Made by a program: the position numbers and the translations under genes. This document shows positions 3,712 to 52,104 of a stretch of 64,000 nucleotides of DNA, one piece after another. The stretch lies in the NCBI GenBank assembly GCA_037349105.1, contig JAYJMM010000034.1, positions 2,604,001 to 2,668,000 on the forward strand, in the 5' to 3' direction. A model generated the notes under the pieces. It made no database searches. It was given only the letters and a program-made list of their open reading frames with translations, and was not told the origin of the DNA. This DNA comes from Limnomonas spitsbergensis (taxonomy: Eukaryota; Chlorophyta; Chlorophyceae; Chlamydomonadales). Numbering within the stretch: position 1 is the stretch's first letter; each line of letters begins with the position of its first letter.

Positions 3712-3892
3712 CTTTGAGCTTGCCTGCATCCCCCCCTCCGAACACCTCCAGAGTTAGAGGGTACCGGACCCCTAAGTGGGTGTACATGTAGTCCATGCTC
3801 GTTCCATAAGCTAGGTAGTTTGACACAACGCCCGAAGGGCCAGCCATGCAGTCGCACAGCTTGCCCATCTCCTGCATGAGCGGGTCCAGCTC
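3712..3892 (-). CDS. Carboxypeptidase exon with catalytic glutamate
   Basis: TTCAG acceptor. It encodes LDPLMQEMGKLC, then YGTSMDYMYTHLGV and YPLTLEVFGG, where Glu is the catalytic base of M14 enzymes. Ends AAAG|GTGTG in phase 1; the following exon was not located. Confidence 0.85.
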
Positions 3893-6800
3893 CTGAATTG
3901 AAGCATCCATACAGGTGCAGAGGGTGTAAACATTTCTTTCTTTTTGTACGTGCCAGAGCACTTTTGGGAGGCTACTGGGCAGCCACCACTAGGCCTAAGG
4001 AGACCAAATACTGACCAGCCTGTGGCTATTGGCCCAAGCTGCAATCATTCAGGAGACAGGGGGGCACACGAAGCGTGGAGAGGTTAGAGGGCACGTGAAG
4101 CGTGGAGAGGTTAGAGGGCACATGAAGTGTGGAGAGGTTCGAATAAGGACAAGCATGCCAAGCAGTCGCAAAGCCTGCCCATCTCCAAAACAAGCGGGTC
4201 CAGCCCCTAGATTTCGGCAGTAGTTCGGGAGCGAGGGCTTAAAACTCATCAATGATCAATCAGAGCATGGAGGGCATGAATGACGCAACAGCCATGCCAT
4301 GTTTGTGCGAGCGAGTGAGGGAGATCCACAAAAGAAGATGGCGTTCAGGCAATTCACAGTACCCTGCAGATGCTCGCTCACAGCTAGGTCGGGTCCCAGA
4401 GATGCCCGGCTGTCCCAGGGCGTATAGACGGCCGACTCCCCAGAGTGAACATTCACGAAGACCAGAGGCTTCCATTTCTGTGCTTGGTCGCGCAAGTACT
4501 TTGACTGAGGCTCGCTGAATGGAGCTTCTCCACCGTGCATTTCGCTTCCTTTCGGCTGGGACACAAGCAGCAGCAGCAGCAGGGGGAGGCATCCGCAGGT
4601 CGGCAGGTTGCAAGCAACATACGCGGGACGGTTCAGCAACAGGAAAGCACATCAACTCATGTCCGGACCCTGACTTGCGGAAGCTCATGGATTTTAGAGG
4701 GCATTCACAAGGGCTCGGTCACTTAGATTTAATATGCCAAAGTGCCAAACAACTTGATGAGGCAAATTCAAGCTTTTACCCTGGGCTCCTAAGCCAAATT
4801 GCAACAAATCAAAGTGCAGAACATATGTGCATCCAAGTGGTATAACCCTGGGCTTCCAAGCTTCAGTGCAGTTCATCCAAGTGGTAATACCCTGGGCTTC
4901 CAAGCTTCAGTGCAGTTCATCCAAGTGGTATTACCCTGGGCTTCCAAGCTTCAGTGCAGTTCATCCAAGTGGTAATACCCTGGGCTTCCAAGCTTCAGTG
5001 CTGTTCATCCAAGTGGTATTACCCTGGGCTTCCAAGCTTCAGTGCAGTTCATCCAAGTGGTAATACCCTGGGCTTCCAAGCTTCAGTGCAGTTCATCCAA
5101 GTGGTATTACCCTGGGCTTCCAAGCTTCAGTGCAGTTCATCCAAGTGGTATTACCCTGGGCTTCCAAGCTTCAGTGCAGTTCATCCAAGTGGTATTACCC
5201 TGGGCTTCCAAGCTTCAGTGCAGTTCATCCAAGTGGTAATACCCTGGGCTTCCAAGCTTCAGTGCAGTTCATCCAAGTGGTATTACCCTGGGCTTCCAAG
5301 CTTCAGTGCAGTTCATCCAAGTGGTATCACCCTGGGCTTCCAAGCTTCAGTGCAGTTCATCCAAGTGTAATTACCCTGGGCTTCCAAGCTTCAGTGCAGT
5401 TCATCCAAGTGGTATTACCCTGGGCTTCCAAGCTTCAGTGCAGTTCATCCAAGTGTAATTACCCTGGGCCTCCAAGCCAAAGTGCCACACACCAAAGTGC
5501 AGTACATCCAAGTGTACTTACTATGGGCTTCCATCCAAAAGCCCAGTTCCTGTTCAGGTCAACCTCGGAGGCGGTCTTGCGGCGGCACAGATCACCTCCC
5601 TCCCACAGATGTCGGCCGTCCATGTTCTCAATCGGCAATATCTAGGAGGCAAAGAGGCATCTGCTTTAAGCAACAACTTATGGTTGAGTGCACGGAACTT
5701 ATCAAAGGAGTAGCCATGGCTAAACCAGGCATGCAGAACTGTGTATTTCAGGACATTTCAGCGACACTTGATGATCAACCCGACCCACGACCCGCATGCC
5801 CTGGTGCAGCGAGCCATGCTGCATGGGCCCCCGGCCGTAGGCCGGTCCAGGTTAGGCCCAGTGGTGGCTGCCCGACGACCCGACGGTCCCCAAAGGTTGC
5901 CTAGCGTGCACTTAAATGAACGCTGGATTGCACCAGCCTGATCCAATGCAAGCGTACCTTGACGGTCAGCCCATCTAGTATAGAGGCGGACCACCGGTGG
6001 AGGACGGATGCATGTGAATCTACGGAGGCCACGCCTGCGTCCTTCATGACATTCCGCATCTGCTCCCAGGAAAGGATCTCGTCGGTGTCTCCTATCAAGA
6101 CCTGGGATTTTTGAAGGGCAAAGGATTTGACCCACACTTACTTAAGAGGCGAAATGCTAATAGTGTAGACTCGTGATTTCACGCGGCATATTTCCCCAGT
6201 AGCAAGGGTATCCATTGCCCGTCCAAAAAGGGTTGCAACGTGATGTAGCTTGTTACCTTGGATAGCCACAGGCTGACTTCTGTGGTGATTATTTCACGGG
6301 CATGCTCTCCAAATACTAGCAATGCCACGGGTTTATCTAGATCATGGATAGAGCTGCCTGTGAGGTGTGAAGAGAGAGGTTGCTGAGCGATCTCGTGGAA
6401 TAGAAGTCTATACAGTCTGACACACCTTTATTAATGTTTGCGAACGTTGCGATTGGTAGACGACTGCCACCATGTAGCTCTACGTCCTCAAACCTACATT
6501 GGCATTCATCCAGCTAGTTACCGCACTGCGCATGGTTAAATGTTCGAAATCAAGACTAATATCGAAGTCTCGGTGCATGGCCCTGTCCTGAAAATCCGAG
6601 GTGAAAGACCCTCGTGGGTGGCAGCATGGCAGCATGGCAGCTACTGGACGGCTAATACCATGGTCGCAGACCAGTTTCAATACGGTGCTTAGCAGCATGC
6701 ATGGACGCATGGAGGGCAGCAGGGCAGAATGGAACCTGAGCTATGGCAAACAAACGCAGTGCTCTTCAAAAATGGAGAGGGGCTACTGTATGCATTCACT

Positions 6801-13779: not shown

Positions 13780-16700
13780 ATGCAACTTCAAACCACTAAT
13801 ATAGAGGGCTTCGACCAAGTGTTCTCGCGCCTTCAAGACCTGCTCAACAGGTAACTATACATGACACTTAAGTACGAAGAAAAATCTTTGTAACACGTTC
13901 TTTCATGTATGCATGTCACCCGCAGCTTGGTGGAGCTGAACAACGGTGTGAACGATGCTGTTGCGGAGGTGAAGGTGGCTTTCGCTGCTGCTGCAAACTC
14001 GTTTGAGCTTCACACAACCATAGGGCCCAGCACGGACATACTGCTCGTGGATTTGTACACCTCGAAGAGCTCCAACATCCGCCCTCACCCCGACGATGTT
14101 CAAATCCTCCTGGACGACCCAGATGTACGGATTGCTGACTTTGAGCTGGAGGTTTCACGGACAGCTCTGCATGCCTTCCTGACCGCCACTACGCCGTCCA
14201 TCACGATCGAAGTCTCGCGGGAAGGCCTGCTCCACATCCCTTTATCGGACACACTCCCTAGCCAGCTGCAGAACCTCAACCTGTGCCTGACCAGGCTGCG
14301 GGAGCTCCTGGGCTCTCGCGCCTACCTTTCAGCATGCATCAAGCCGGCCATCGCCTACGGCAAGCCCACCGTGAAGGCTGTCCTGAAGCGCTACGTGGGT
14401 GGGCCACAGCCGGAGCCGGTCCCGCTCCTTGAAGTGTGCGCGTCACAATATGCCCGCAGCATCAAGGACTCGGAGGCCGTCCTGGTGGACCGGGCGCAGT
14501 ACCTGGCCCACAGGGCCAGGACCCTAGAGCTGGAATGGCAGGTTGAGGCTGGGTACCGCATCTCCATCACCTCAGACATCACCAGCATGGAGACCCGAGA
14601 CCAGATCGCCGACATCCTACAGGTACTCTTTCATCTACTGCCTCAGCTGCATCACAACCTACTGCTCATGGTGCACGATGCAGCAAGCCCTGCTACCTGG
14701 GGGCCTCCGGCTGTAGGCAGGGTCAGCAGCGGCCTAGTGATGACCACTTAGCAGACAACCAAATCTGTTTTTTGGCACAGTTAAGTAAAGAACTTGTCTG
14801 TCAGTGCGCAGCATAGCGCCTTCGGCAAGCTGCTGGGCAGCCAGCACTGGGCTGATGGGGGCAGTCAAACCTTCACCTGCTAACGGCCCGTGGCCAAGGC
14901 AGCAGGCTTTGCTGCACCCGGTCCCCTAGGCCATAGACCAAGACAATGCTCGATGGCAGCTTTTCTTTGCACAGAAAAAAGAATCCTTAAGCTAAAAGCA
15001 AACCCTGAACTACACAAGAGACCTCCACCTTGAAACGAGCAATGCAATCTTGAATGGACACTAGACCCTCCACCTTGGACCCTTATCTGCAGTCCATCAA
15101 CGTGTCCATGTTCAAACTCATGAACTCGGGGGCCTCGGCCTTTGAGCCCGCCTCGCTGGCGAACGCCGTCGTGCAAGTGGTGCGGCCGGTTCTGGAGCAG
15201 CTCAAGGAGAAGCATGCGCTGGACTACCCGCCTAGCGACCTCAAGGTGGGCATGCAGGCTGTTTAAAATGGTGCATACCCGCTGGGCCCTGCTCGGCCGC
15301 TTGAGGGCTCGGTAGGAAATGAGCAGCCTTAAATCCAGCTACTATGCACAGCCAGGACCACGGTGCAGTCTTGCCACATTCCTATGCGAGGAGGGCAGGA
15401 GCATGGAACCCGGTGATCTAGTCCCCATCCGCCCAGAGGCCGCCCAGCAGCTTGCCCTGGTGCGCCCTTAAATAGGCACTGATGGCATGGCCTAGGGAGC
15501 AGGACGCGCTGCGAAGGGCAGAGGCGCGAGCCTGTCTTGAGACGATATGAACCTGAACCTGAATCTGTACCGTCAAGCTGACTGTGGAATTCAGACGGAA
15601 CATTGACATGTGGTCTCCTGGCCTGACCTAAACCTCCTTTGCCCCCCTGACACCTGCTGCACCTTCCCCTCGACTTGCAGAGCTTGATCTCTGTCCAGCC
15701 GACTGTGGAGTTCAGGCGGGACGACAGCGGGTCGCCCCCGGTCTTTGACTTCAACATCAATGTGGACATGAGCCAGGGGGCAGGCATCCCACCCTTTCCG
15801 GAATGCCTGACAGAAAGGGTGAGGAGGCTGATATATTGGGGGCGGGGGCCGCTGTCTATGTCAGGTCTCGCTTCAGCTGGGGATCGCGGCCTAGGGCTGT
15901 GGCGCGGGGGAGGGGCCTCGTGCGGCAAGCCCTGCTGCTTGAACCCACTGGCCTGTCAAAATTGCGTTCCCGTTTGCCCAGTGGCGGCCGCCGAGCGGCC
16001 CCCTAAAGGTGGTCAGGCACGCTAAAACATGAGCAATGAAAGATTTCTTTGCTTAGCAAACGCGAGAGGCAAGACCGTAGACTGCTCGGCAGAAAAGGTG
16101 AGTGGGCTGGTCCGGGCTCCAAGGTGCATTTCTTGCCCTGGCGTTCGTTCCTACGCCTCTGGTCACCTGTTTCGCGCTGGCAGCTAGCCCTGGGGAGGCA
16201 CCAGATTTTCTACCGCAGTCCCTGTTATGGCGCGCCCAAACTGGTTTCCGAGCGCTTGTCATATGCATCGATTGTGCTCAGCTAGACTGAAAACATACCA
16301 AACGTTTTAAAATATCCGCAGACGGGCCAGCTTTTGGCGGCTTTATACAACCTGAAAGAAGTGATAGCGGAGTCTCTGGAGGCCCTCCCGCCCATCAGCG
16401 AAGAGGTGGACATCTCACTGGAGCACGCCAAGGTGCGCAGGGGGGTCAGTAGGGTTAAGTTGCGCAGGGGGGTCGGTAGGGTTTAGGTGCGCAGGGGGGT
16501 CAATAGGGTTTAGGTGCGCAGGGGGTCAATAGGGTTAAGGTGTGCTGGGGGTCAATAGGGTAAATTGCGTGGGGGGTCAATAGGGTTAGGGTGCGCGGAG
16601 GGTCAATAGGGTTTAGGTGCGCGTGGGGTCAATAGGGTTTAGGTGCGCAGGGGGTCAACAGGGTTAAGTTGCGCAGGGGGTCAATAGGGTTTAGGTGCGC

Positions 16701-33700: not shown

Positions 33701-36700
33701 TTGACACCCAGTAAGGCAAGCACGACCAGGTCACGGTCCAATTCATCAGCAATCTCAAAGATATCGGCAGGCATGCAGGGGATTTTGGAGCAGCAACATT
33801 TCCTTCCTCTATTCCAGCGCACTGTTCCTTTGATACCCAGCTGGCAGCGCCAGCGTCAAGACGTCACAATCTGACTGATGTCAAAGTCGGCGAAGAAATA
33901 TCAAGCCCGAATCCCAGTGATTTCATTAGGGTTCAGGTTACAGCGCCCAGGGTCCAGGGTAGGCACAACGAGGTTGAAGTCAGATTTGACCACATCTTCG
34001 GCCCTGCGTGATCTCTACTATATAATTTTCACATTTGTTCCACATTTGTCTTATTGCTAGCGGTGCATGGCCGCCACGATGGGCATTGCACCTTGCCTCA
34101 CAACACGCAATGGTGGAACTTGCTAACGTAAGTACAACAGAGCTAAAAGAGCCTTGAGATGCGTTTATTGCTTTATATAGTTCAGCTCACTAATACAATA
34201 ACATATCTCATGCACTGTAATGTCATACAGTAGTGCCGGTGGATAGATTGTTTCTAACTTCGACACAAACTATGAAGCAAACCACCGTGACAGAATGGCA
34301 GACGGGACGGCAGACATAGGCACACAAGGACGGGCACAGGAGCCAAGAAAGGCAAGTCTGACAAGGGAAGCAAGAGGCACAGAGAGAGGACACGAAACAA
34401 ATCAAATGGAAGGGGAAAAAATAGCCCCACTAGATAGTACCAGATAGCTTAACGGCAATGTATATCCTAAGCATGTGTGTATACCGCGGCCTGTTATTTC
34501 CAAGCATGCATGGACTTACCTGTGCGGGTCATGTAGCGGGAGGTCTGCCTGGGCCAGACAGATGCAACGCAAGCCCCGGCTGGCCATGTCCTCCACCACC
34601 TGCAGCAGCACCTGCCGGCCCGAGGGGGACAGCGGGGCGGCAACGCCGTCGCTGTTGAAAACCGAGCTGCACCTGCGAGGGAGGGAGGGGCGGGAGGGGA
34701 GGGAGGGGCGGGGATGGTAGGGGTTGTGCGACGAGTCATAGGTGGTCGGGTGGGGCGGGATGGAGGGTGGAGGGTTAACTGTGTGGCTTGCATGTGAGGA
34801 AGGGAGTGAGGGGACAAATATGAGGGCATGAGGAGAGGTTGAGGCAAGCAGCAAGCTGGGATTTGGGTTGTCAACACAAGGCAGGGTAATAAGAAAAGGC
34901 GCGGAGAGACGGATGGTGGAAGGTTTGGCATTCAAAAGCCTGGCAGCTGCTCATGGATGGTCACCAATGTGAGTTGTTCGCCCCCCTCGGGTACAAGTCA
35001 ACCTGCAATGCGCTACCCTGCGGCCGCCAAAGGCCTTTTGGGTGGCAACACCTTGACACAGGCCCTGAAGACACAGGCCCAAGCAGAGCATGGCTGGCCT
35101 TGCAGTAGGCATCCAAATACTGTTTTGTCATTCTGAATTCGTTGTATTGAATTTTTTTAGCCCTCAAATGCCGCAAGTATTAAAACAAGTTTGATTTCAC
35201 ATAAATATTTTGTTAACCCTTTACGTAATTCTTTTTGTCAATACAATTTATTTATCACGCCTTCATTTTCTTAATTTCATCTTTTTTGAAGCCCCAAGTG
35301 TTACAAAAGCATTAAAAAATATTACAACAGTCCCGGAAAGGGCCTAGCAACAACACAAACTGGCGAGCCAGCAGAGACCTATCTGTGGCTATTTATCTGA
35401 TTTGAAACAAGCTCTGCCTCATCGAGATTTCTGGGGATCCCGGACCCGAAATTTGGCCTCGCTCTTGACAAGCTTGTCAGGCCACTGTTTCGCCGATAAC
35501 TCGACGCACGTGCAAGCTTTTGACAACATTTTGTTGTTGTATAAAAGATCTCCTTGTGGAGCATAAGACAGGCTATCGAACTCGGTAGAATTTCCAAGTT
35601 TCGCGCCAGCGAATCTAATCTCCGTCGACACGACTCACTTCCGCTGAAACACGGGGAAAATGACGATTTGGCCTTGGGGACAACCAGTAGATGGTGTCAT
35701 GCTGGAAAATTCGACCAGGCTGTTGCAGATATCAATGAACGGATGTCGAATCAACCAGTCGTACGCTAGCATGCAAGCGCGGCCGGTCATTTTTGTTATT
35801 TATGACGGTGTTTTGACGTTAATGATTTATTTGCCCTTAAAGTGACGCAATATTAAATATAACAATATATTCATATACCCTCTTGGATGTCGTCGCAAAA
35901 AATGAAATTGGAGTAACACTACGGTAAGGAATAGAGGCCGCATGGAGTAGCTGAACTACGGCTGACTACTTCCGTAAAACACTGTTGTCCACACTCCACA
36001 CCAATTTGTATGGTAGTGTGAATCAAAAGTGTGGATGTGCCCTGCCTCCCCTCCAATTAACGTTGTGCAGGGTGGAGGTATAACATGACCATTACCAGAG
36101 GAGTTGACAATTTTCGTCAGCGGGCTTCAGTCAGGAATCGGGAGTTCCAGAAAATCTTGTACCCACGCCGCCTTCCCGCACCCCTAGGATAACACAATCG
36201 TTCAATCCGCCCCAAAGATGTTTTTGCCGGTTGTTTATTACCGGTAAGCCACGCAGGATTTTTGTATTATTTCATCGTCCACGCCGCTCGCCCGATCTGA
36301 CAGATTCCGACTGATTCCGACCGATTCCGCCCATCGTCGTTTTTACGCACCCCAATATAAGTAATTATACTCCGTGCTGCCAGTTGCGCACCCCTCGCAA
36401 GCGTGATTTCCGCGCAAAGGCATCCTGTTAGTGTGGTGGCGTGTCACTTTGCTCCAACAAAGTGTACAAGGGGGGCAGGGGCATTTGTCTTGTTTCTAGT
36501 CCTAGTTACCAATCGCTCCAACTACATGACGGAAACCTGCCCCATGCACCAAATTATTCAAATACGATGCTTTGCTGGACCAAAAAAGACACAGAGACAC
36601 TGAAGACAATCTCCCATTACGTTATTCATGTTGACTTTCGTTATGTATCAATGTCTTCAGGAACCTTTGCCGCAGCCTGCCATGTTAGGGGGTCTCACCT

Positions 36701-39700
36701 CTGTAGCACCCACTCCGCTGCGCCCTTGTTGTACAACCGATACCCAGTGGGCGTGCGCATGATGCAGCTGCTCATCTTCCTGACTGAAGAGAAGCCAAAC
36801 AGCTGCGGAGGCAAGCAAGGGGGCAAGCGGGGGGGGGGTGGGGGGCAAGAATGGGGGAAGGGGAGAGGGAGGGGAAGAGGGTGCAAGGATGGGGGAGGGG
36901 GATCAGGAGGGGGGGGGGGGGGGGAGAATGGGGGAGAGCAAGGGGAGGGTGCAAGGATGGAAAGGGGGGGGAGAGGGTGCAAGGATGGGGGAGGGGGATC
37001 AGGAGAGGGGGGGGGGGGGGGGCAAGAATGGAGGAGGGGTGGAGGGAGGGTGAAAGGATGGGGGAGGGGGAGAGGGTGCAAGGATGGCGGAGAGCGAAGT
37101 GAGGGTGCACATAGGGTGGAACATAAAAGCAGCTACGCACCACAGACGCACCAGAGATTAAACAAAAACATTTACGGTACTGTTTAAGAACAGTAAATAA
37201 AACACAGTCAATTCTTGAAATCTCTGTCGTACAGGTATATAACCTCATGAAGCTACCGGCCTTTAGATACCAACCTAACATAAGGTCATGGAATTGCATA
37301 CAGAACGCCAAACCTCTCAACGCATATGCTCTCAATGCACCCCCAAAATGCCGCACTCCCAAACTGCAGCATCTCCGTCAAACAAATATCGAGGCTTCAG
37401 GGACCAGGGCTGTCAGACCACGAGGCCTTTCCCCCTGCACAGAGGCAAGGCCCTGCAAATAGTGACAACAACGTGAAGGGCACAAGCGCTGAGCGGGGGA
37501 ACGAGCCAGGAAGGAAGGGGGGGGGGGCAGGGAAGAGAACCAGGCTGGAGGGGGAGCGGGGGACAAAACCAGGGTGGGGAGGGGGGGCCCAGGACAAATG
37601 GCCAGGGAGGTCGGAACTAGGGCGCCATTGGCGTCAGACCACGAGGGAGGGGGGCCCCCTTGTCACACAGAGGACAAGCACCTGCCAACAGCAATAGCAG
37701 CAGCAGGAAAGACATGTGCTCAGCTTCACACCGCTGCAGAGCGTAGCTTTCTCCCCCCCCCTCCCCCGCCTCCCAGCCCGCATCTGATGCAGCCGTCCAT
37801 CTATCCCATCTCCAGCAGTACGGGAATCCGATCTCCCCCCCACTCACACACACGAATAGGAGCAGCATGCACCTGCATGCCGTTGTCGGGCCCCTGGAAG
37901 AGAAACAAAACTGCTTATCTGGAGCAGCCGTCCGTCCATCGCCTCCCTGGCAGCCGTGCGGAAATCGAATCCCCATGCACGCATCGGCAGCAGCACAGCA
38001 GGCCATGCATGAGGCCTTGTCCGGCTGCAGACCAGTAAGTAGCTGAAGTCTAGCTGAAAGATTGCTGGGCTGCACAAAATGAAGCAACACTGCTCACCTG
38101 GTGCAGCCTGTGGGCCATCTCCCTCCATCTCCCTCAAACCCTAAACTCTAAACCCTGCTCACCTGGTGCAGCCTGCCGTCCATCTCTTCCCTCACGGTGC
38201 GGAAATCGATGCCCCATGCACGTGTCAGCAACAGCAGCGCACACTCTGTGCAGTTGCCCGTTGTCACGATGCGGCCGCATGGCTCCTCGGCGATGTACGC
38301 CTGAGAGGGATGAGCCATTGAGGGGGGATCGGCATTAGTCTATGTAGGCCCGAGAGGACGTTTTACATGCAGTAGGGAGATTGCCGCAGCAGCTGAAACA
38401 CCGTTTAGGAGCCAAGCATACCTAGCCCAGCTCCTCGGGGCATTGTAGGCGTATGGGGGGGTTGAGGAGTTGGAGGGTGTTGTCAATAAAGGCCTGAGAG
38501 GGGTAGAGCAGCAGCAGCAGCAGCAGCTGCAGCAGCAGCGGTAACGCCCTGTCTAAACAACCTGTGTTTGGCGTGTCAAGAATGGTTTAGGGTTTAGGTT
38601 TCTAGATAGGCAGTCATCATTTGTTTGAATCATTGTTTGAACGATCGTTTATATGACTGTGTTAATAAATGTTTAAACGACCCTTTCAATCATTTTTAAG
38701 TCATCAATAAACCGTTGTTTGAACGAACCTTCGAATCATAGTTTGAATCATGTCATCACATACAGAGGGGCTGGATATGTACGCAAACGATATGACTGAA
38801 GCTCCATATCACACGTTGCATTGCTAACATAGGCAAGCAAAACAAGTCGGTCATGTCCATGACATGACTGAAGCTTTATGGTACATAAGTATGCAAAATT
38901 AGCCAACCAGCTATCATTGAGCCAATGAAACTTTTACCTCCTACCCGTCGACCTGACAAGCAGTGGTTCAGGAACTGAGCCTGTCTGGCTTCTGGACATG
39001 CTGCCAAGGTCTCTGAGCTGAAGCATCTTCTGAGTATCACACACATGCTCCTCACATACCAACAGAAATGCCACATGCGGTATTTGAACAGGCCGGCTGG
39101 GCCAGTTTGGGGATCATTCAGAGACCAAACCCTACCCCTTTCATCCTACCCAGAGACCAAAACCCATTCAGAGACCCAACCTTCAAACCTAAACCCATTC
39201 ATAAACCAAATTTTTAACCCATTCAGAAACCTAACCCTTGCCCTCGACCCTACCAGAATCAGACACCACACCCTTAGCCCCAACCCATTTAGATACCAAA
39301 CCCTGACCCTTAGCCCTAACCCATTTAGATACCAAACACCAAGCCCTTCGCCCTAACCCATTTAGATACCAAAACCCCAACCCTTGGCCCTAAACCATTT
39401 GGGTGCCCAACCGGGGCCAAGCCATGTCGCGCGCCCCGCCTACCAGCTTTCCTCCACGGTCTCTTTTATCTCAGAACGGCCACAGTTCAGCTACAGTTCA
39501 GATAAAGTTCAGCTACAGCTCAGTCATCGCCTAGCCTCTAGCCAGAGGCCGCATGCGCAGGCAGACATGATGCTTGGGCCCGTGTCTATGGGCCGGTAAT
39601 GATTGGTCCCAATCGGGCCTTTGGCGGCTGCGGGGTGGCCTGTTGGAAATTAGACCCGTAGCGCAAGACTAAAGCGCACATGAGACCTGTCCCTGACTCC

Positions 39701-42700
39701 CTGCTCAGTGTTGTCTCTGTCTCCACCAGGATCCTACACAACTTTTGAAAACCCTCAGGTGGAATTGGGTCACACTTCAAACTAAGCCGGGCATACCAGA
39801 ACAGGGCCTTATTTTCGTCTGGGATAAGCGATTTGAGAAATGTGGGAAAGTGTGGAAATCGTTTGGAGCGAATTTCTGACCCCGCCTTGCTCTCTCACAT
39901 ATGTCCCACCATTGTCACCACTGGAGGTGGCAGCCGTTCCATTGGCTGAAGTGTGTGAGGAGTGACCATGGTCCATACCCCAACTAACCAAACTGTTTCA
40001 TACCATGCTCTCCACCGTTGACGCCACTACAGGTGGCGGCAGGTCCGTGGGCTGAAGTGTGGTACGTGTGAAAGTGATTCATACCCCACCTTGCTGTTCC
40101 TCACCATGCTCTCCACCATTGATGCCACAAGAGGGGATATTGGGTATGTTGGTTGAAGTGTGGGGAGTGTGAAACTAATCCATACCCCATGTTGATGTTG
40201 CTGACCTTGTGTTCTCCACCATTGACGCCACTAGAGGTTGTGGCAGGTCTGCTGGCTGAAGTGTGACAAGTGTGAAAGCTATCCATACCCCACCTTGCTA
40301 TTCCTGACCATGTTCTCCACCATTGACGCCACCAGAGGCGGTGGCAGGTCCGTTGGATGAGGCGTCCTGCTGACCTTGCGCCCGGCCAACCAGCCCTCCA
40401 CCACTGTCATGCGGTTCTCTGTCAGCGTGCCCTGAGAAGGGTTCAGAAGCATAAGCAGCAAGGGAGAGGGGAATTAACCGGGGTTGCAGTAACAGCAACA
40501 GCAGCAGCAGCAAGGGAGCGAGGAGAATTAACCGGGGTGCAGTAACAGCAACAGCAGCAGCAGCAAGGGAGCGAGGAGAATTAACCGGGGTGCAGTAACA
40601 GCAACAGCAGCAGCAGCAAGGGAGCGAGGAGAATTAACCGGGGTGCAGTAACAGCAACAGCAGCAGCAGCATGGGAGCGAGGAGAATTAACCGGGGTGCA
40701 GTAACAGCAACAGCAGCAGCAGCAAGGGAGCGAGGAGAATTAACCGGGGTGCAGTAACAGCAACAGCAGCAGCAGCAAGGGAGCGAGGAGAATTAACCGG
40801 GGTGCAGTAACAGCAACAGCAGCAGCAGCAAGGGAGCGAGGAGAATTAACCGGGGTGCAGTAACAGCAACAGCAGCAGCAGCAAGGGAGCGAGGAGAATT
40901 AACCGGGGTGCAGTAACAGCAACAGCAGCAGCAGCAAGGGAGCGAGGAGAATTAACCGGGGTGCAGTAACAGCAACAGCAGCAGCAGCAAGGGAGCGAGG
41001 AGAATTAACCGGGGTGCAGTAACAGCAGCAGCTGCAAGAGAGGGCGACATTCCGCCAGCCAACCAGCCTTGAATTGTGGTCATGCGGTTCTCTGTCAGCG
41101 TGCTCACGGGGGTATATCAGCAGCAGCAGCAGCAGCGGTAGCGGATGCGTTATCAGGTATCATTACTTGTATCATTCTTTTATTCACACATCTATTACTA
41201 CTATTATCAACAGCAGCAGCAGGAGCAGCAGGAGCGGTGGGTCCCTTGTCAGGTCTTGGCACTCGCATTCCTTTCGGAGCACGTAGGCACCCTGCACACA
41301 TTTCTGTTTAATCCAAGCTCTAGCACCTCATCCATTTTCTTGTCATCCATTCACCCCTGCACTCCCATAGTCCCCTTAACACAGGATGCGGTGCTCAACT
41401 GCAGACAGTCTCTCTGGAGCAGAGGCAGCATGCTCAGGTCATGACCACCGGTCATGACACCCACCGTCTCATTGGAGCGAAGAGGCAGCATGCTCAGGTC
41501 ATGACACCCACCGTCTTGTCGGAGCAGATGGTGGTTGCCCCTCCCATGGTCTCACAGGCAGAGAGAACCCTGTAGGGGACAGGGAGGGTGGCTGGGTGAG
41601 AGACATGGCTTCAGGGCTCAGGGATCAAGGTTCAGGGTTCAGGGTTCAGGGCTCATGGTTCAGGGTTTATTTCAGGGTTCAGGGTTTGAGATTTAGGGTT
41701 AGAGGTCGGGTTAGAGGACGGGATTAAGAGCATAGGAGGAGCCACTGCAGTAGCGGCTACCCTTCAGGCGTTCGGGTCAGAGCCTGGGTAGTCAGAGCGC
41801 AGGAGGAGCCGCTGATGCTGCACAAGCGAGATGGCGTCACAAGGCTAAAGAGAGCGGTACAGACGCAGTACAAGCATGACACACCCAGAAGGTAGCGGTG
41901 GTGGTGCAGTGCAGCGAGGAGGGAGCATTACGCCGGTACAGGTGGAGTTCACCTAGGTCGAGACTGTACATGTGAGGTACGACCAGGGGGCGGTACAGTT
42001 GCAACGCAACAACTACGAGGGAGCAGTACACGTCCGGTACACCAAGAAGGAGGCTGTACAGGTGTGGTACGGCCGGGGGGGGCGGTGCATGTGCAGTACA
42101 TCCTGGAGGGATCGGTGGGACAGACATCTCAACACCACTTGACAACTGCTTTTCCTTTCCCAGTGGCAGGCCATACGTTAACACATGCACTGTACAGACT
42201 GGGGTACAGACTGGGGTACAGACTAGGTCACATTCAAAGATATCTGTGTAGTGCTGTTCAGAGTCAAGGTATGAATACAAGTATTGGTGTGGGTCAAAAT
42301 ATTGGTCAAAGTGCTGGTATTGGTCAACGTGCTGGTCAACATGCTGGTATTGGTATTGGTCAAAGTATTGGTCAAATTGTTGGTCACATTACTGGTCAAC
42401 GTATCGGTCAAAGTGCTGGTATTGGTCCAAGTATTTGCCAAAAGGCAAAGCGCACGCTCAAGTCAAAGATTCATTTGTGAAGTTCATCTGGTCACCGCGC
42501 TCCCATATCCATTCTCGTCAAAGCGCCAACGTTGCTCCCCGCACTACCCAGTGTCCTCGCTCGTTCCCGCATGTCCCCCCGCATATCCCTACGTACGCCA
42601 GGCAAGAGGCCTAAACTTTCACCTCACAAAGTTTGGACAAAACCCTTATCCCTACAATCGGGCCTCTTGTTTCACCTCACAAACCCTAAACCCAGGCATC

Positions 42701-45700
42701 ATGCCTCACCTCATAAACTTTAACCAAACCCTAAACCCTAAACCCAGGTCTCTTGCCTCACCTCACAAAGTTTAAATAAACCCTAAACCCATGCCTCTTG
42801 CCTCACCTCACAAAGTTTAGACCAAACCCTAAACCCTAAACCCGGGCCCCTTGCCTCACCTCAAAAACCCTAAACCCAGGCCTCTTGCCTCACCTCACAA
42901 AGTTGTTGTCCTTCATCATGCGGGTCATGCTGTATGCTAACGAGATTGTCACGGCAAGGGGAAGGCCCTCCGGAACCGCAACCACCACAATGGTCACACC
43001 ATACCTGCAAGGTTCACAATTTCAAACTTCAAAATTCAAATTGCAGCACTCAAGATGGTGCCACGCTTCATGTCTGTGTCACACTCCAAACCCTCGGGGG
43101 AGTGTGCACGACCAGCTGGCCAGGCCAGCAGTTCATTTCCTGGGCACATGCAGCACGTGGCTGGGCCTTAAATGTGTGCATATGCTCAGCAAAAAGCCCA
43201 GCAAGGCTCAGCCACATACCCAATATATGGCTAAGATTGAGCTTCACGGCACAGCCTGATACTGATTTCTGAAGACATGTAACTGAGCATATGCACACGC
43301 ACCTGAAGCTCGGCCTCAAGCACGATATGAGCCGAACTGAGATGTAGGGGACAGCCTGTTCCAGTCTACCAGTCACACGTACCTGAGATGCACACATGCA
43401 TCTGAATGAGCACTGCATTCTCAATGCGTCCCGGGTTTTTGCTTTTTGAATGTCGAATAAGCATCTGGGTTTCTGTACAAGCATCTCTGAAGTATGCAAC
43501 ACGTATCTCCAAACATTTGGGGCCCAGCACACTCACCGGAATATCTACAAAGTATCTAAATAGTATCTCCAGACATTGGGTCCAGCATACACACAGGCAA
43601 ATCTGAGAAAAAACTTAAAAGTATCTCCAGACATTTTGGTCCCAGCACACTCACAGGAAAAACTGGATGGGGCCATTGTCGTTGATCTCCTTGAGAGGGA
43701 AGCCTCGGTTGACAATTACCCATCTGATGAGGGGGGGGGGGGGGGGAGTATAAGGGTGGGGATAGAGGGGGGGGGGCATGATCAGGGCAAGGAAATCGGG
43801 GGTAGGGGGGAGCCTTAATTTACAACTTCATTTACAACGGACCTGACGTTGTCGAGGGACTGAGGGCCTGCGCGATGGAGGTATTCAAGCCCAGTCTACC
43901 ACCAGTGACGCCAGGAGGAGTCCGGAGACAGCGAGGAGGGGCCAGGTGAGTGGCTGGTCAACCCAGGCTCCACAGCACGTGATGAACACTCGGCCAGGGA
44001 CACTCGGCATTGACTCACCTAATAGGCTGTGTGCACAGGCGGGTATGCTGTCCTTGTGCCTTGTCTTGCAAAAACTAGAGCTGTTCAGGGTCAGCGACAC
44101 ATGACACAAAAGATCTCTGCTTTATACCAAATAGCTCTGCATTACACTGCAAATATCCCCACAATACACTACAAACAGCTCTGCATTACACTACAAATTC
44201 TCACCTGTCTTCGCCAGCTCCATTCGTAAATTGGAGTGTCGGTCGATTTGTAACCCCGAGTGCAGAATTTCAATAAAGGATTCCTTTAACCCCGATGGAG
44301 GGCAATTTAAATCCACAACAGCCAAGTGTGCGTACCCTGTCCCAATGTATGGCATTTTGATAGCTCATACAACGATGCAACATGTGATAGATGCTCTTCA
44401 ACATCGGCAGGGCATGTAAAGTATCTTGTCAATGCCACCTCATAGACATATCCTGACACAAATCAGGAAATGCACTTTCCGTATTATTTGGAAGATGCGA
44501 ATAACGGATGTAGGGTTAAGGCTGACTTCAGGGCACCGGTGTATTTTTTAAGAATTGGCTCAACCCGGATTTCACCACTTCGTCATTATTTGACGACTCC
44601 TGCGGTGACATTTTGAAACTCCGAGGCTCGGCCAAGGATTTAGGGTTTAGGGTTTTTAACACTCCAAGGCGCGCGCGGGGGGGTAGCACCGCCCCCCTGC
44701 TTGGGGTTCCCAGGGCCAATCCCGGTGGGGGTTCGGGGCGAAGCCCCCAAAGCTCAGAAACAACATGACATTTAACAAAGAATTTCGACATTGGAAATAT
44801 TCACTTTTTCAGAAAGCAGGGAAGGTGAGTTTTATTACAAGCAGAGTTGTTACAAGGAATTATGCCAACTGGTGACAACTGAGTTCTGAGACAAAGATAA
44901 GATGTCCTAACCGTGCGTCTAAGGGGACAGCTGAGCTCTGATTCAAAGTCTGCCCTCCCCTCTGGCCTTGAAAGCTGCTATACTGTTTGTGTACTACAGT
45001 GTCTGTTCATGGTCATCAAGCTGTCGCTTGTGTGTGTCCATATCCCTCTGGCGGACGCTGCCATGACACATGCACTTTTCCGGGCTCTCGTTGAAACCTT
45101 TTATTTCCCAGCCAGGGGCGCCGCATCTCCCTGCGTGCGCGCCCTCAAAGGACGAGGCCGGAGAAGTGTTTGCCCACTGGCCTTTCTTGCCCCTCCAAGA
45201 ACCATCCCTTTGAATTTCTTAGGTTTCTCCGCCATTTTATTGCAATTGATCGTGCGTGCGCTGCAACAAGCCTTTTGTACTGAGGGGTACCGCCACAGTA
45301 AAAAAGTAAATTGACCACGCCCAGCCGACCCCGAAACCCGCTGTACTCCCACAAATCATGGTATTTACTACGCCTACAAAAGAAAATCACTGAAGGGTAC
45401 TGGGTTGCCTCGTCTCGGGCAGGTTACTTTTCGGGGAGGGGCTGCAACATTTGTTCCTCAACTTTTGCCCAGAATACCACGCTGAATCCATCATGAGGGC
45501 CAAGAAGAGTACCGGCCTTCCCGGCAGATTGGAAACATGGGGGCAGCATGACACGCTCAGGATTCAAAATTCAGGGTTTGGGATTTGGGGTTCAGGGATA
45601 TGGATTCAGGTTTCAGGTTTCAGGGTGGCCAGCAGGGATCTGCAACACCAGCCCAGTACGCGCAGCGCTCACTTGATCAGCAGGGCCAAGAAGCAGCAGC

Positions 45701-48700
45701 CCGCCACTGCCACGCCGACTTTCCCAATCGCCGTCGCCACCACCTCCAGCGTCTCCTGCAACGGCGTCTGCCCGTGCCCAGCCCCCTGCATCAGCTTCAT
45801 GGCCTTGCCCCACTCGCTGCTCTCGCCGACTGCCAGGACCAGCGTGCGGGCGCTGCCCTCCAGCACCTGGGAAGAGAGACAGCGCATGGCAAAGGTGCTT
45901 GCACCACGCTGTTGAGGGGGGCTTCCGGTAGGCCGACACAGGGACCGATTGCCAAGACCAAGATGTGTGCCCTGCCCGCCAACGCCTGAGTGTTCGAGGA
46001 GTACCCGCATGATTCATTACTTGGCAGTGTGCACCGGAATAACTTGCTAGGGCTGTCGTGTGGCAAACATTGCACCGGTTGAAATGACCAGCATGTGCGC
46101 CCTCCGCCCCAAAGCGCGCGCCATCCCCTCTGGTTGCCTGAGGAGATGGCACCGTGCCCTCCAGCACCTTAGGGAGAGAGGGAGCACGGGTCTCCTTTGT
46201 GTTGCGCACCTGAGCACCGTTTAGGGGAGGGCCGGATGGGGACGCCACAGGGCGGATGAAGGCCAAACCATGGTTGGCCTACAAACGACTGCAAGTAAAT
46301 AAATAAATCAAACGATATGCCCTGAGGCGTAAATCAAGGAAGCCACTCGTTCGGCCGTAGCACTAGGTGAGCTACCATACGGACGACTACCTAAGCACCA
46401 GGGCATGCTGCACCGGATTCCCTTGGCCGCAGGCCCGGACGTTCTTCAATTGTAGCTGAATTGAAGCTGAATCAGAGCGGAGTTGTGGCGGACTTGTAGC
46501 TGAATTGCATCTGAGCCGTGGCTGAATCATGGCAGGATTACAGCTAGATCATAGCTGATTCGTAGCTGAGCTGTATCTGAATCATAGCTTGACCTGACAC
46601 AGGAGCACATCGCCTAGGCATCACGCACATTTGCTCACGGGGCAACGGCATTTTGATCGGAGGCAGGCATGAGCCTCTCAGCCTCCCCCTGCCCCCCCCC
46701 CCCCCCTGCTCCGGTCGTCCTCATGGCCGCCCAACTTGATTCACCCCAGCCACACGAGGAGCACCCAAGGGGGTGCGGACGGACAGGCCCCAGCATAAGA
46801 GGCAGCTACACGGTTCAGTGTTCAGGGTTCAAGCTGAGCCTGAGCCCACAGCCTGGAAGGCATCTGCACGGCAAAGCAGGTTCCCAGCTGAAAAGGCTAT
46901 GGCAGGCCCGCCTGTGTTCCTGAGCGGACCCAAGGGCCGTGCACGCTGGTGCCCTTCATGACCCAAAGGAGCGCCAGGCAACACCACTCTGTTCTAAACC
47001 TTCCCATCAGGAAAGAGGCACACATGTGCTCCAGAGCATACACCCAAGGGTACTATACAGTGTCCCTCTTGACCGGCTCCGGCCCCCTGATCAAGTCCCC
47101 CGCTTTTAAGGCAAAGGCGTGCCCACCTGTGTCCCTGAGCGGACCCAAGGGTCATGCACAGTGTCCTTCTTGACCGGATCGGCCTCCCCTGTGAGGCTCG
47201 CCTCGTCCAACACCAGCCCAAACGACTGGATGACCAGGCAGTCAGCCACCACCTGCGCCATGCAACACGGCGCAATTTAATCAGGCAACACAATCAGGCG
47301 CTTCCGGCCTGAACAACACCAGCCTGAACAACTGGATCACCAAAACATCAGCGCCCCCTGTGCCACAATACAGCGCAGTTAATCTGGCAGCACAATCAGG
47401 CACTTCCGCCACAAGCCGGAACGACTCCATTACCAAGAAATCAGTCACCACCAGCCCATACGACTCCATCCCCAAGGAATCAGCCACCACCAGCCCATAC
47501 GACTCCATCACAAAGCAGTCAGGCGGTCCACCACGGCCTGCCCGACAACACAGAGCAATCAAGCAGGTCTGCTTAAAATTGAAGTTTGAATTCAGGCCAG
47601 CAGTGGTTGTCAGCTGTGGTCGCAATCGAAAAGCATGCCTCCCTGGAACAGCCGTTTGAATGCAGAGACTGCCGTTTGAATGCTGAAACTGCCGTTTGAA
47701 TGCAGAGACTGCCGTTTGAATCCAGAGACTGCCGGCAGCCAGGGTGGGGGGATCTGGGTGTGCACCAGTGGGTGATGTACTGCTGCTGGGAGGTGATGTC
47801 ATGCTGCAGGGAGGTGACGTACTGCTTCCGGAAGGTGACGTGCTGCACCAGGAGATGATGTACTGCTGCTGGAGCAGCCCTGACCCGGATCCCCAGGGGT
47901 TGATGTGCTGCTGCTGGGGCAATGAACACCAGATTGCCAACCAGGTGGGATTTGCCAGTTTGCTCACAACAGGCAGACCTGACTCATCAGCTACCCTGGA
48001 TTCCTCACCATCTCCTCCATGACTAAAATGAAGAAGTCTTGAGCTTGCTCGCTGGATTCTTGTTACATGTTCTCTGTGTCTACAACTAGCAGGTCTCTCA
48101 CCACGAGTTTGCTGGCTCACCATGTGCAGACCTGACCTTAGCCAACCTGGATTCCTCATCCTGTCCCCCATGCCTGAAAACATAGACATCTCCGGCCACA
48201 AGTGCCGTGTTTAAGACCAGTCCCTGCCGTTAAGGCTGCCAGGCACCCCGATAGCAGGGACTGGCCGCTGCCTTGACCTGGATCCTCAGCATGGCCACCA
48301 AATCTACACCCAGATGCTTCCTCACCTTGTCCCCCGTGTCTAAAATGAGGACGCCGCCAATGGCTTTGAGTCGATGACCGTGTTGAAGACCAGTCCCTGC
48401 CGTTAGGGCTGCCAGGCGTCCCCAGTGGGAGAGACTGGCCGCTGCCTTGACCTAGGTCCCCAGCATGCCCGATTCCCACCAACTAAACCTGTAGATACTT
48501 CCTCACCTTGTCCCCTGTGTCCAAAATGAGGATGTCGCCGACCACGATATCCGTGTTCGGGACCAGCCTCTGATGCTCATCCCGCACCACCTTGACCATG
48601 ATGACGTCCCGCTTGGCGTACAGCTTCTGGAACTGCCGATCCTGAGGAGGTGAGCGGGCAGGGGCATGAATGGGGCGAGGGGGCGAGCAAGCATGCGGGT

Positions 48701-51700
48701 AGAGGATGGATGGGGGAAGCTGGCGAGAAGGCAGATGGGGGAAGCTGGCGAGAAGGCGGATGGGGGAAGCTGGCGAGAAGGCGGATGGGGGAAGCTGGCG
48801 AGAAGGATGGATGGGGGAAGCTGGTGAGAAGGATGGATGGGGGAAGCTGGCCAGAAGGCGGATGGGGGAAGCTGGCGAGAAGGATGGATGGGGGAAGCTG
48901 GCGAGAAGGATGGATGGGGGAAGCTGGCGAGAAAGATGGATGGGGGAAGCTGGCAAGGGGGATGGATGGGGGAAGCTGGCGAGGGGGGAGCTGGCGACAA
49001 TATGGGAGAATGTCTGGGAGAATGTCCAGTGTGGGGGGGGAAGAAGGGCGATCATGCGGGGGAATGAATGGGTGGAGGGGGGAGGCGGGTGGAGTAGGAG
49101 GAAGAAGGTCTGGTGCGGGGGGGAAGGAGGGCGAGCATGCTTGGGGCTGAAGGGGGTGAGGGGGAAGCTGGAAAGCTGGTAAATGCCTGGGGTGGGGGGG
49201 AAGGGGATAAGTGGGCGGGATGGGCGGGTGAGAGGGTGGGGAAGGTCTCGGGCAGGGGTGAAGGGGGCAAGCGGGTGGAGGAATTTCTAGGGCGATGGTG
49301 CATGCTACTGCCCTGTCCCAGACATGCATTTGCAGCAGCATGGCACATGCCAGTACCCTGTCCCCATGCATACTTTCCTCCCCCCCTTCCCCGGCCCTGT
49401 CAGCATCAAACCTGTCCAACATTACATCCTCTCAGCATCACACACTTTCAGCATCACACATCTCAGCACCACACTCTCCGGGCATCACGCACTCTCAGCA
49501 TCACACCTTTCCAGCATCACATCCTCTCAACATCACACTTTCCCAGCATGGCAAACACTCAACATGACACCTTTCCAGCATCACGAATCACGGCATCACA
49601 CTTTTCCAGCATCACAACCTCGCAGTATCACACCTTCTGCCAGTCGTTCCCAGCACCAACTCCAACCACAATTAGGACTGCCACCCAGATGGCCGCCCCC
49701 TCAATCCACGCCTTGTTCTCCCTCTGCTGGGGGATGAAGACGCCCATGAGCGTGGACACCTGGGAACGTCAGGGAGGGGTCGTCGCATGTCAGCGCACTC
49801 AACAGGCAAGGACTGTTCTCTCTGCACTCACTGGGGGATGAAGACGCTTGTCAGAGAGGACACCTGGGAATGGCAGGGCAGGGCAGGCGCATATCAACGC
49901 GCTCAACAGACAAGTTATGTCATCTCTGCGCTTGCTGGCGGGTGAAGATGCTCATCAGAGAGGACACCTGGAAACATCAGGGCAGGGCGGGCGCATGTCA
50001 ACGCGCTCAGCAGGTAAGGTTTCTTCTTCCTCTGCAGGGGGATGAAGATACTCATGAGAGGGGAAACCTGGGAACGTCAGGGCAAGGCAGGGCAGGCGCA
50101 TGTCAACGCAATCACCAGACAAGGATGGTTATCCCCCTTCTGGGGGATGAAGATGCTCATGAGAGGGGACACCTGGGAGCATCTGGGCAATCAGGGCGGT
50201 GCAACAGGTCGTTTTTTTAGGTGCGCCTTGAGGTGCTTAGGTGCGCAGGTGAGTACCGTGGCTGAGGTGCGCAGGTGCTGAGGTGCGCAGGTGAGTACCG
50301 TGGCTGTCTAGACAAAGAAGCCACTTCTGGGCCGATGTGAACCAAATCTTAACCGGCCTACGGCCGATGGCCCAGCCAACCAGGCTTGCAGAACCAAGCC
50401 CCGCCGGCTGTAGGCCGGGTTGTGGAAGGGAGTGAAGCCAATGCAGTGATACAACCTCTAATAAACTGTGGCATGCGCATGTCAGCCCCTCACAAGAAGT
50501 GGAATCTGCTGCCCAAACATTGAGGGAGGGATCTCTCTCACGTCCTGATCCCGCTACCAGCCAGTGCGTACTGCCATAGCTCACTTCAGCCAACTCCGAA
50601 ATATATTATATATTCATATTGCCCAGAAGGTGACCGGGAGGGATGCCTCTCACATTCTGATCCGGCCACCAGCCAATGTGCACTTCCACCACACATGTCG
50701 CATCCGGAAGCAGAACCAGCCCGGCACCACCAGCCTGCTATTAACTTCAGGGAGGCTGCGCCAGGTTCTATGCCGCTTATTGCAAGCCGAATCCGGCCAC
50801 AAGTCAGTGTGCAGTTCCACGGCTCATGTCACATCTAGAGGCAGAAGCAGCTTGGCACAACCTGCATGCTCTTAAGCTGGACGCCTCGCCCTTTGCGCCA
50901 GGTCACACTCAAGTTATCAACGGGTTGCGGTGTAGTTTATAGGGTCTTTCACATCGAATGGAACCAGCAGCCTAATTTCTGTGGGAGATCAGATCCCAGC
51001 AGAGATCAGCAGCCTGTGCTCACCGTTGCAGCGATGATGAGCAAGATGATGACGGGATCCCGCATGGTTTCAAACACCAGCGTGCGGAACAGCTTGGGGG
51101 GGTCGGCGGCGTGACATTGGCACCGTAGTACGCCCTGGAGCACAGGGGGTACGACGGGGTCTCTTGTGGTGTCATTATCAGCAGCGGGATGAAGTGTGTT
51201 GTGAGCGTCGGAGCCAGCCCTGACCATCAGTGGCCGACCCGAGTGAGAGTGGAAGGTTGCAGATATATGGCCTGGATGGTACCGGTAGCGGGCTTTCTCC
51301 CTCAAAATTAAATTTGCCGAGGAGAAAGAATGCTCGGCCCTCTTTTGAAGCACGTCCGGGGTTTTGAAAATGTCATTTGCGCTCGGCTATCAAGCACGCG
51401 GCATGGTGCCACGCCATGTCGCTCAGCAGGATGGTGGCCGGGGCCTCCATGTTGAAGCAGCTCGAGATTCTTGCGTGTTTATAGGATACAAATCTGCATG
51501 ACAGTGGCAGGAGAGGAGGGGCACATACCTGGATTTCTGCACAAGCTCCGGCCGCAGCCCATGCCTGATGTTAGTGCGCAGGTCATGCCCCAGACCCTCG
51601 ACATCTCCGTACTTGCTGTGCAGCTCTCCAATATCCTTGTTCTACGGGGAAATGGAAAGCATATGCTGAAAAGTCCTAGCTTTCGAGATCGGAAAATGTG

Positions 51701-52033: not shown

Positions 52034-52104
52034 GGGTTCGAAAGCAGTTATCCGCCGTACGATTCTGTTTTTTTCATGGTCAGCATGCCACCGTCACCGA
52101 TCTT

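What the first reader, a model, noticed from the sequence alone, without database searches (positions are those of the whole stretch)
3712..50220. Introns built from tandem copies of the adjacent exon edge and splice site
In all three spliced genes, many introns contain tandem repeats whose unit includes the end of the neighbouring exon with its splice site. Seen at Ca2+-ATPase exons 4 (both sides), 5, 6 (both sides), 7, 8, 9, 10, 11 (both sides), 12, 15, 17 (both sides), 18, 19, 20 and 21, at two or three carboxypeptidase exons, and at exon 5 of the unknown gene. Tandem duplication of AGGT-bearing exon sequence is a known proposal for intron birth. Here it seems to act over and over at existing junctions, as a genome-wide mode of intron growth, leaving dozens of decoy splice sites. 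I know of no description of this as a systematic feature.
Basis: partly seen in the sequence, partly recalled or inferred. Interest (0 to 1): 0.88.

Follow-up and report, generated by a model that had tools for sequence, protein, structure and literature searches.

The report
Tandem duplications overrunning splice sites
In a snow-alga genome, long introns have grown by short tandem duplications that ignore the exon boundary, so they often carry several worn copies of the neighbouring exon edge with its splice site.

Summary
The genome fits Limnomonas spitsbergensis. In the three spliced genes 17 of 54 tested exon edges match their own intron better than all 200 length-matched controls; in genes elsewhere (PMCA paralogs, copper ATPases, kinesins) 26 of 196 do, against about 1 expected; reverse complements 1 of 250 overall. 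It belongs to long introns: outside the window 19 of 40 edges of introns of 800 nt or more, 7 of 156 of shorter ones. It is uneven: three Ca2+-ATPase paralogs show 2 of 76. In long introns the splice site is not a hot spot: the share of 40-nt pieces copied within the same intron is about one half inside the intron, still one half in the first 40 exon bases, and fades by +80. So the arrays look like the overhang of a general, junction-blind tandem duplication process that splicing hides. Growth rather than birth is favoured: 7 of 8 introns shared in position with paralogs carry copies, 3 of 9 window-only introns do, and the crosswise signature of intron birth is nearly absent. Known kind, new in scale. 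Whether decoys are ever spliced is untested.

The parts
49831..50187 (-). four copies of the acceptor junction of Ca2+-ATPase exon 4 (splice site at 49760), 33-47 exon bases each
   Evidence: score 28 vs control maximum 12
48001..48358 (-). two copies of the donor junction of exon 5 (splice site at 48506), 30-33 exon bases
47314..47559 (-). four copies of the acceptor junction of exon 6 (splice site at 47253), 42-46 exon bases
46877..47089 (-). two copies of the 3' edge of exon 6; the one at 46877-46963 runs through the donor (splice site at 47126)
46155..46180 (-). one short copy of the acceptor junction of exon 7 (splice site at 45867), 13 exon bases
41046..41103 (-). one copy of the 5' edge of exon 11 (splice site at 40432), about 60 exon bases; a separate 53-bp intron-only array lies between it and the exon
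39879..40259 (-). about four overlapping matches to the 3' edge of exon 11 (splice site at 40293), 45-67 exon bases, period about 101
37911..38121 (-). two copies of the donor junction of exon 12 (splice site at 38162), 24-74 exon bases
33700..33897 (-). two old copies (69-78%) of the 5' edge of exon 15 (splice site at 30962), far inside the intron
28170..28320 (-). two copies of the acceptor junction of exon 17 (splice site at 28097), 20 exon bases
27157..27188 (-). one copy of the donor junction of exon 17 (splice site at 27948), 25 exon bases
26587..26894 (-). three copies of the acceptor junction of exon 18 (splice site at 26416), 54-55 exon bases
26093..26143 (-). one copy of the donor junction of exon 18 (splice site at 26290), 47 exon bases
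24471..25214 (-). array of about eight copies of the acceptor junction of exon 19 (splice site at 24414), 35-51 exon bases, period about 106
15572..15601 (+). one copy of the 5' edge of exon 4 of the unknown gene (splice site at 15680)
4157..4208 (-). one copy of the acceptor junction of the last modelled carboxypeptidase exon (splice site at 3893), 50 exon bases
19016..51910 (-). Ca2+-ATPase (PMCA type) gene that hosts most of the arrays, 24 modelled exons, internal sites AG/GT (end of exon 11 later moved to 40294; exons after 20 less certain)

Best explanation
Short tandem duplications (smallest junction-to-junction spacing, median, 112 nt) arise all over the introns of this genome without regard to the splice junction. 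Those lying wholly in an exon are removed by selection. Those that straddle a junction leave the mRNA unchanged as long as the spliceosome keeps using the exon-proximal site, so they persist. The extra exon edge and splice site become intron, can be duplicated again, and decay. Introns thereby grow, and long introns end up with several worn copies of their own exon edges. Shown: local origin of the arrays tested, equal copy rates on both sides of the junction in long introns up to about 40 exon bases, enrichment in long introns, occurrence in P-type ATPase, kinesin and two further genes. Inferred: neutrality through splice-site choice (most plausibly exon definition of short exons), removal of purely exonic duplications, and slippage or unequal exchange as the DNA mechanism.
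For: Exon edges match the adjacent intron in 43 of 250 junctions vs about 1.2 expected, reverse complement 1 of 250. In 37 introns of 800 nt or more, 40-nt windows with a copy in the same intron: 29-40 of 74 at intron offsets -400 to -20, 36 of 73 at +20 in the exon, 21 of 68 at +40, 10 of 64 at +60, 1 of 63 at +80, 4 of 56 at +100; -20 vs +20 not different (38 of 74 vs 35 of 73, p = 0.74). Copies span the splice site. A DNA search with 47.2-50.2 kb gave no hits elsewhere for the stretches that hold the exon-edge arrays of exons 4, 5 and 6. Copy identities 67-100%, median 83%: many ages. Self-copy content rises with intron length (rho 0.59, 117 introns; cross-intron control 0.00). 7 of 8 window introns shared in position with paralogs carry copies, and these are about three times as long as in the paralogs (mean 1787 against 543, from the table).
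Against: With unit lengths taken from the observed copy spacing, blind placement predicts deeper reach into exons (0.58 and 0.47 of the intron level at +60 and +80) than seen (about 0.3 and 0.04): something limits the exon part. In introns of 200-800 nt there is a drop at the junction (30 of 128 vs 15 of 127, p = 0.02); shorter units there predict a ratio of 0.75, so about half of the drop is left unexplained. Three paralogs show almost none (2 of 76; 4 of 64 in the looser). The one near-identical gene pair compared (L006, L007, 97.5%) shows no difference in array length. Non-redundant intron length also rises with length, so detectable copies explain only part of it. No RNA data.
Confidence: 0.72

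Rival explanations
1. Splice-junction-targeted duplication: something about the junction (AGGT, R-loops, splicing-linked breaks) makes it a hot spot, so introns are built from exon edges.
For: About half of the junctions of long introns carry copies; acceptor copies keep AG in 65 of 74.
Against: No peak at the junction: intron interior and exon edge are duplicated equally often. Long arrays in the same gene lie wholly inside introns, such as 32119-33021 and 40454-41036.
Confidence: 0.1
2. Intron birth by tandem duplication of AGGT-bearing exon segments (Rogers model), the arrays being relics of that birth.
For: 9 window-only intron positions relative to three paralogs; 9 of 24 Ca2+-ATPase exons begin with GT.
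Against: Of the crosswise signature, the downstream-exon side passes in 5 and the upstream-exon side in 6 of 116 introns (about 2 expected each), both sides in 1, which is a mis-modelled exon edge. Copies are commoner in shared (7 of 8) than window-only introns (3 of 9).
Confidence: 0.07
3. Alternative or mutually exclusive exons: the copies are functional tandem exons.
For: Mismatches 0.115, 0.149 and 0.196 at codon positions 1, 2, 3 (53 copies), which constraint on the true exon alone could give. One kinesin locus (L043) has whole-exon copies.
Against: The largest copy covers a median 28% of its exon in 40 junctions; in L043 the copies lose conserved switch I residues (motif recalled).
Confidence: 0.05
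4. Assembly artefact of long-read tandem collapse or expansion.
For: PacBio CLR assembly (PMC11228838, passages); two 1-nt frameshifts in the gene; about four 99.8-99.9% copies of a 3.3-kb unit at 51-64 kb.
Against: Most copies differ from the exon edge by 8-25%, the exon-edge arrays are under about 1 kb while read L50 is 33 kb (PMC11228838, passages), and they recur at many loci.
Confidence: 0.03
5. Intron-borne mobile elements (introners) that carry splice sites.
For: Repeated units with AG and GT.
Against: No copies elsewhere of the exon-edge arrays in 47.2-50.2 kb (only this stretch was searched, and the tool skips very common words).
Confidence: 0.02

Closest known systems
Internal tandem repeats at exon-intron boundaries of recently duplicated human genes (PMC2812944; passages read)
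   Same: Tandem units straddle an exon-intron boundary and differ between paralogs
   Different: There 27 intron modifications in segmental duplications, often with alternative transcripts; here ordinary long introns of several gene families in one alga, with the splice site seemingly invisible to the process
Tandem genomic duplication crossing an intron-exon boundary, potato RdRp (PMC4974935; parts 1-2 of 5 read)
   Same: Duplicated segment crosses an intron-exon boundary and carries its splice signals
   Different: One event that created a new intron; here repeated events at existing introns
Rogers model of intron gain by AGGT duplication; vertebrate ATP2A1 case (read about in PMC4974935 and in passages of PMC3443670)
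   Same: Tandem duplication plus splice-site choice keeps the protein unchanged
   Different: Crosswise signature nearly absent here
Human introns from tandem arrays (Zhuo and others 2007; seen only as a reference entry, content recalled)
   Same: Splice sites lie inside tandem units
   Different: Concerns intron origin and alternative splicing, not growth of existing introns
Fission yeast introns made of tandem repeats (PMC3629103; one passage read)
   Same: Introns consist of tandem repeats and resemble nearby exons
   Different: Two gained introns only

Membership tests
Tandem repeats spanning exon-intron boundaries | Tandem copies of a unit that contains exon sequence, the splice site and intron sequence | tested here: met
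   100 copies with at least 8 exon and 6 intron bases (set before three kinesin introns were dropped)
Tandem repeats spanning exon-intron boundaries | Variation between paralogs | tested here: met
   Shared-position introns carry copies in the window gene (7 of 8) while three paralogs have 2 of 76 junctions in all
Tandem repeats spanning exon-intron boundaries | Effect on splicing seen in RNA | not testable with these tools
   No RNA reads available
Rogers-type intron gain | Intron start homologous to downstream exon and intron end to upstream exon | tested here: not met
   Both sides in 1 of 116 introns, a mis-modelled edge; one side in 5 and 6 of 116
Rogers-type intron gain | Intron absent from relatives | tested here: inconclusive
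   9 window-only positions against paralogs; gain or loss not resolved
Introner elements | Same sequence at many unrelated introns | tested here: not met
   for 47.2-50.2 kb only
Introner elements | Terminal repeats or target-site duplications | not tested
   -
Tandem or mutually exclusive exons | Whole-exon copies with both splice sites | tested here: not met
   Median 28% of the exon, 90th percentile 60%, maximum 100% (40 junctions); L043 is an exception
Tandem or mutually exclusive exons | Copies expressed | not testable with these tools
   No RNA reads available

The most novel reading that the evidence does not exclude
In this alga splice junctions are transparent to tandem duplication because exons, not introns, are the unit that the spliceosome recognises. 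Long introns grow by junction-blind duplication once they pass the length at which exon definition takes over, and they keep a standing reserve of intact decoy acceptors (AG kept in 65 of 74 copies, at least one in 18 of 20 junctions) that can be recruited for alternative 3' splice sites. The step at the junction in introns of 200-800 nt and its absence at 800 nt or more would mark that switch, and the same mode may explain the long introns of related cold-water chlamydomonads. (Odds lowered from 0.30 to 0.27 on re-checking: shorter units already predict part of the step.)
Probability: 0.27. Interest if true: 0.78.

Novelty: new variant of a known kind. Interest (0 to 1): 0.6.

Why it matters
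Intron length differs greatly among eukaryotes and is mostly ascribed to transposons (general knowledge). Here a recognisable part of long introns comes from local duplication that runs over the exon edge, in a genome whose published repeat table leaves 22.78% 'unclassified' (PMC11228838, section 18). It gives natural series of decoy splice sites of graded age next to the true one, so how the spliceosome chooses between near-identical sites becomes directly testable. It also warns annotators: decoy exon edges misled my own spliced alignment at three introns.

Tried and rejected
Splice-site targeting, intron birth, introners, tandem exons and assembly error were each weighed as above. A simulation with observed spacings did not fit the depth of exon overhang; a single unit of about 100 nt would (ratios 1, 0.67, 0.33, 0), but that is my own reckoning, not a call. 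A test for decay of decoy sites gave an unclear asymmetry: by junction, AG is better kept than its surroundings in 15 of 20 and worse in 3, GT better in 6 and worse in 7 of 13; true sites are fixed by selection, so part of this is expected. The Rfam scan of the window at gathering thresholds found nothing, ARAGORN no tRNA. Ten paper searches gave no description of this as a systematic, junction-blind mode of intron growth; most listed papers were seen as titles and abstract starts only. Passages of PMC4039745 (C. elegans intronic minisatellites) and PMC2891723 were read as well. In two further snow-alga genome papers I searched terms: PMC11457085 has none of 'intron', 'tandem', 'minisatellite'; PMC11247165 gives mean intron lengths.

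Choice of loci and rows dropped. Ten 20-kb stretches around P-type ATPase matches were fetched; five (C122, C104, C109, C117, C41) were used for junction tests, the other five (C118, C95, C37, C26, C124) only for repeat coverage and a tblastn look. The two copper ATPases are the two best matches, but I had looked at their open frames and seen repeated peptides before modelling them. Kinesins: 11 loci are the best matches after the one used as query (5 of 44 junctions positive), 5 were picked for having four or five listed motor exons (9 of 28 positive); those five span 3-6 kb, which favours long introns. Dropped before counts: 23 introns with a weakly aligned flanking exon, 27 kinesin introns for the same reason, then three kinesin introns found to be mis-modelled (L043 5 and 6, L045 5; 4 of their 6 junctions were positive) and one carboxypeptidase intron. 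With the three kinesin introns kept, kinesins were 17 of 78. Kept although its downstream exon looks doubtful: L034 intron 4 (one positive junction). Searches were run before the three introns were dropped; the long-intron profile does not contain them.
Full report
What was checked. The window lies in a 260.2-Mb genome of 124 contigs. Size, contig number and longest contig (10,736,355 bases) match Limnomonas spitsbergensis, an Arctic snow alga (PMC11228838: abstract, sections 18 and 20 and passages read). The identification rests on the match of these figures. I modelled the Ca2+-ATPase (24 exons, minus strand, 51910-19016), an unknown gene (6 exons, plus strand; no family match for its longest exon, so its model rests on open frame and splice sites alone) and five exons of an M14 carboxypeptidase, a rough model with one donor unsettled and another one base off. 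A spliced protein-to-DNA alignment with a Haematococcus PMCA (P0001) reproduced both edges of 18 of the 19 exons 2-20 and moved the end of exon 11 to 40294.

The observation. The last or first 40 bases of each exon were aligned locally to the adjacent intron and to length-matched pieces of other introns. In the window 18 of 64 junctions beat all 40 controls. With 200 controls drawn only from other genes, Ca2+-ATPase gives 15 of 38, the unknown gene 1 of 10, carboxypeptidase 1 of 6. Most matches run through the splice site in tandem units: for example four copies of the exon 4 acceptor at 49831-50187 and about eight copies of the exon 19 acceptor at 24471-25214.

Beyond the window. I tested three PMCA paralogs (2 of 76 junctions), two copper-transporting ATPases (3 of 30 and 7 of 18) and 16 kinesin loci (14 of 72; 7 of 16 loci have at least one). 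Together 26 of 196 junctions outside the window beat all 200 controls; about 1 is expected. Reverse complements of the same edges do so in 1 of 250 over the whole set. The copper ATPases are the two best family matches, though I had seen repeats in their frames before modelling. Of the kinesin loci 11 are top matches (5 of 44 junctions) and five were picked for having four or five listed motor exons (9 of 28). The effect follows intron length: outside the window 19 of 40 junctions of introns of 800 nt or more, 7 of 156 of shorter introns (Fisher p = 3e-10).

The profile that decides. For 37 introns of 800 nt or more I asked, at fixed offsets from the junction, how often a 40-nt window has a copy elsewhere in the same intron. 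Inside the intron 29 to 40 of 74 windows do, at each offset tested from -400 to -20. In the first 40 exon bases 36 of 73 do. Then it falls: 21 of 68 at +40, 10 of 64 at +60, 1 of 63 at +80, 4 of 56 at +100; reverse complements 0 to 9 per offset. A second run gave 38 of 74 at -20 against 35 of 73 at +20, p = 0.74. So the splice site is neither a hot spot nor a barrier in long introns. In introns of 200-800 nt there is a step at the junction (30 of 128 against 15 of 127, p = 0.02), of which the shorter units there predict about half (ratio 0.75).

Anatomy of the copies. In 40 flagged junctions the longest exon overhang has a median of 42 bases (28% of the exon; maximum 104 bases), and the smallest junction-to-junction spacing a median of 112. 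Identities run from 67 to 100%, median 83% (116 copies), so copies are of many ages. Of 100 copies that span the junction, 65 of 74 acceptor copies keep AG and 15 of 26 donor copies keep GT; counted by junction, 18 of 20 and 9 of 13 have at least one intact decoy. Two arrays supply 34 of the 74 acceptor copies, so the counts are not independent. Mismatches by codon position are 0.115, 0.149 and 0.196, which a constrained exon and a free copy could give.

Growth rather than birth. In the aligned core the window gene has 18 introns where the paralogs have 10 or 11; eight positions are shared with at least one paralog (one of them with only one of the three), nine are window-only, two are found in all three paralogs but not in the window gene, and one differs by a codon. 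Introns at shared positions are about three times longer in the window gene, and 7 of the 8 carry exon-edge copies, against 3 of the 9 window-only introns. The crosswise homology expected if a tandem duplication had made the intron was found on the downstream side in 5, on the upstream side in 6 and on both sides in 1 of 116 introns; the last proved to be a mis-placed exon edge inside another donor array. Detectable self-copies make up 3% of introns under 500 nt, 10% at 500-800 and 26-28% above; cross-intron controls give 0.00. They explain part of the extra length only; the non-redundant length also rises, perhaps because older copies are no longer recognisable (inference).

Not dispersed, as far as tested. 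A search of the genome with 47,200-50,200 returned the window itself; purine-rich repeats matching about 48.70-48.98 and 49.03-49.28 kb; arrays on C123 and C41 matching the CATCACA-like repeat at 49.40-49.63 kb, which abuts the donor of exon 4; and the exon 4 region in the paralogous genes on C122 and C104. The stretches that hold the exon-edge arrays of exons 4 (acceptor side), 5 and 6 had no other hit (scored candidates only, very common words skipped). Other arrays were not searched.

How it most likely works. Short tandem duplications arise throughout introns. Straddling duplications are tolerated because the exon-proximal splice site still defines the same exon. Purely exonic ones are purged. 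Inferred, not shown: that exon definition makes the choice, and that slippage or unequal exchange makes the duplications. Against a purely blind model, exon overhangs are shorter than the observed spacings predict; selection against larger exon copies is one possible reason.

Uneven distribution. Tandem repeats cover 20.6% of window 3-51 kb and 3.0-25.8% of ten 20-kb stretches around other P-type ATPase genes. The window gene and the copper ATPase on C41 are rich in exon-edge copies, the PMCA paralogs poor. Why loci differ is open.

Limits. Exon edges rest on protein homology or open frames, not RNA. No raw reads were seen. Decoys misled the automatic alignment at three kinesin introns, which were dropped.

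Relation to what is known. Tandem duplication at exon-intron boundaries is known (PMC2812944, PMC4974935, PMC2891723, PMC3629103, PMC3443670; passages or parts read), described there mostly in connection with intron gain or alternative splicing. What is new here is frequency and form: about half of the junctions of the long introns sampled, with a duplication profile that passes through the splice site unchanged. In my ten searches I found no such description.

Noticed in passing
window 50962-64000: A 3,301-bp unit holding the first Ca2+-ATPase exons and retroelement-like sequence is repeated about four times at 99.8-99.9% identity: a recent tandem duplication or an assembly effect.
   Followed up: partly
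window about 51095 and about 29250: Two single-base frameshifts in the Ca2+-ATPase, one in a run of seven C. The assembly is from PacBio CLR reads, so sequencing error is possible; recent decay of the gene is not excluded.
   Followed up: partly
L006 and L007 (G000 C104, about 15 kb apart): Two tandem PMCA gene copies, 97.5% identical over 3.2 kb, sharing a 29-bp intronic array of equal length.
   Followed up: partly
G000 C113, about 3995660-4002903: Three P-type ATPase fragments spaced about 2.8 kb apart with identical scores: another tandem array of part of a gene.
   Followed up: no
window 41512-41569 (exon 10 end): The intron before the GTLTEN motif lies one codon further downstream than in three paralogs (347.0 against 346.0): a candidate case of intron sliding.
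   Followed up: no
L043, kinesin introns 5 and 6: Whole copies of the switch I exon in the upstream introns; the copies lack the conserved serines (motif recalled).
   Followed up: partly
window 7444-9663: Intronless open frame of 739 aa between intron-rich genes, no Pfam match.
   Followed up: no
window 32094-33086: 25 copies of a 36-bp unit inside a Ca2+-ATPase intron leave both strands open for 330 or more codons; not taken as a gene.
   Followed up: no
window 49401-49637: A CATCACA-like array abuts the donor of exon 4 and has 68-74% relatives on C123 and C41; whether it spreads or arose more than once was not examined.
   Followed up: no
window 1-740 and about 53100-54260: Pieces that look like the C-terminal end of a non-LTR retroelement (judged by eye; no Pfam match for 7-738).
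   Followed up: no
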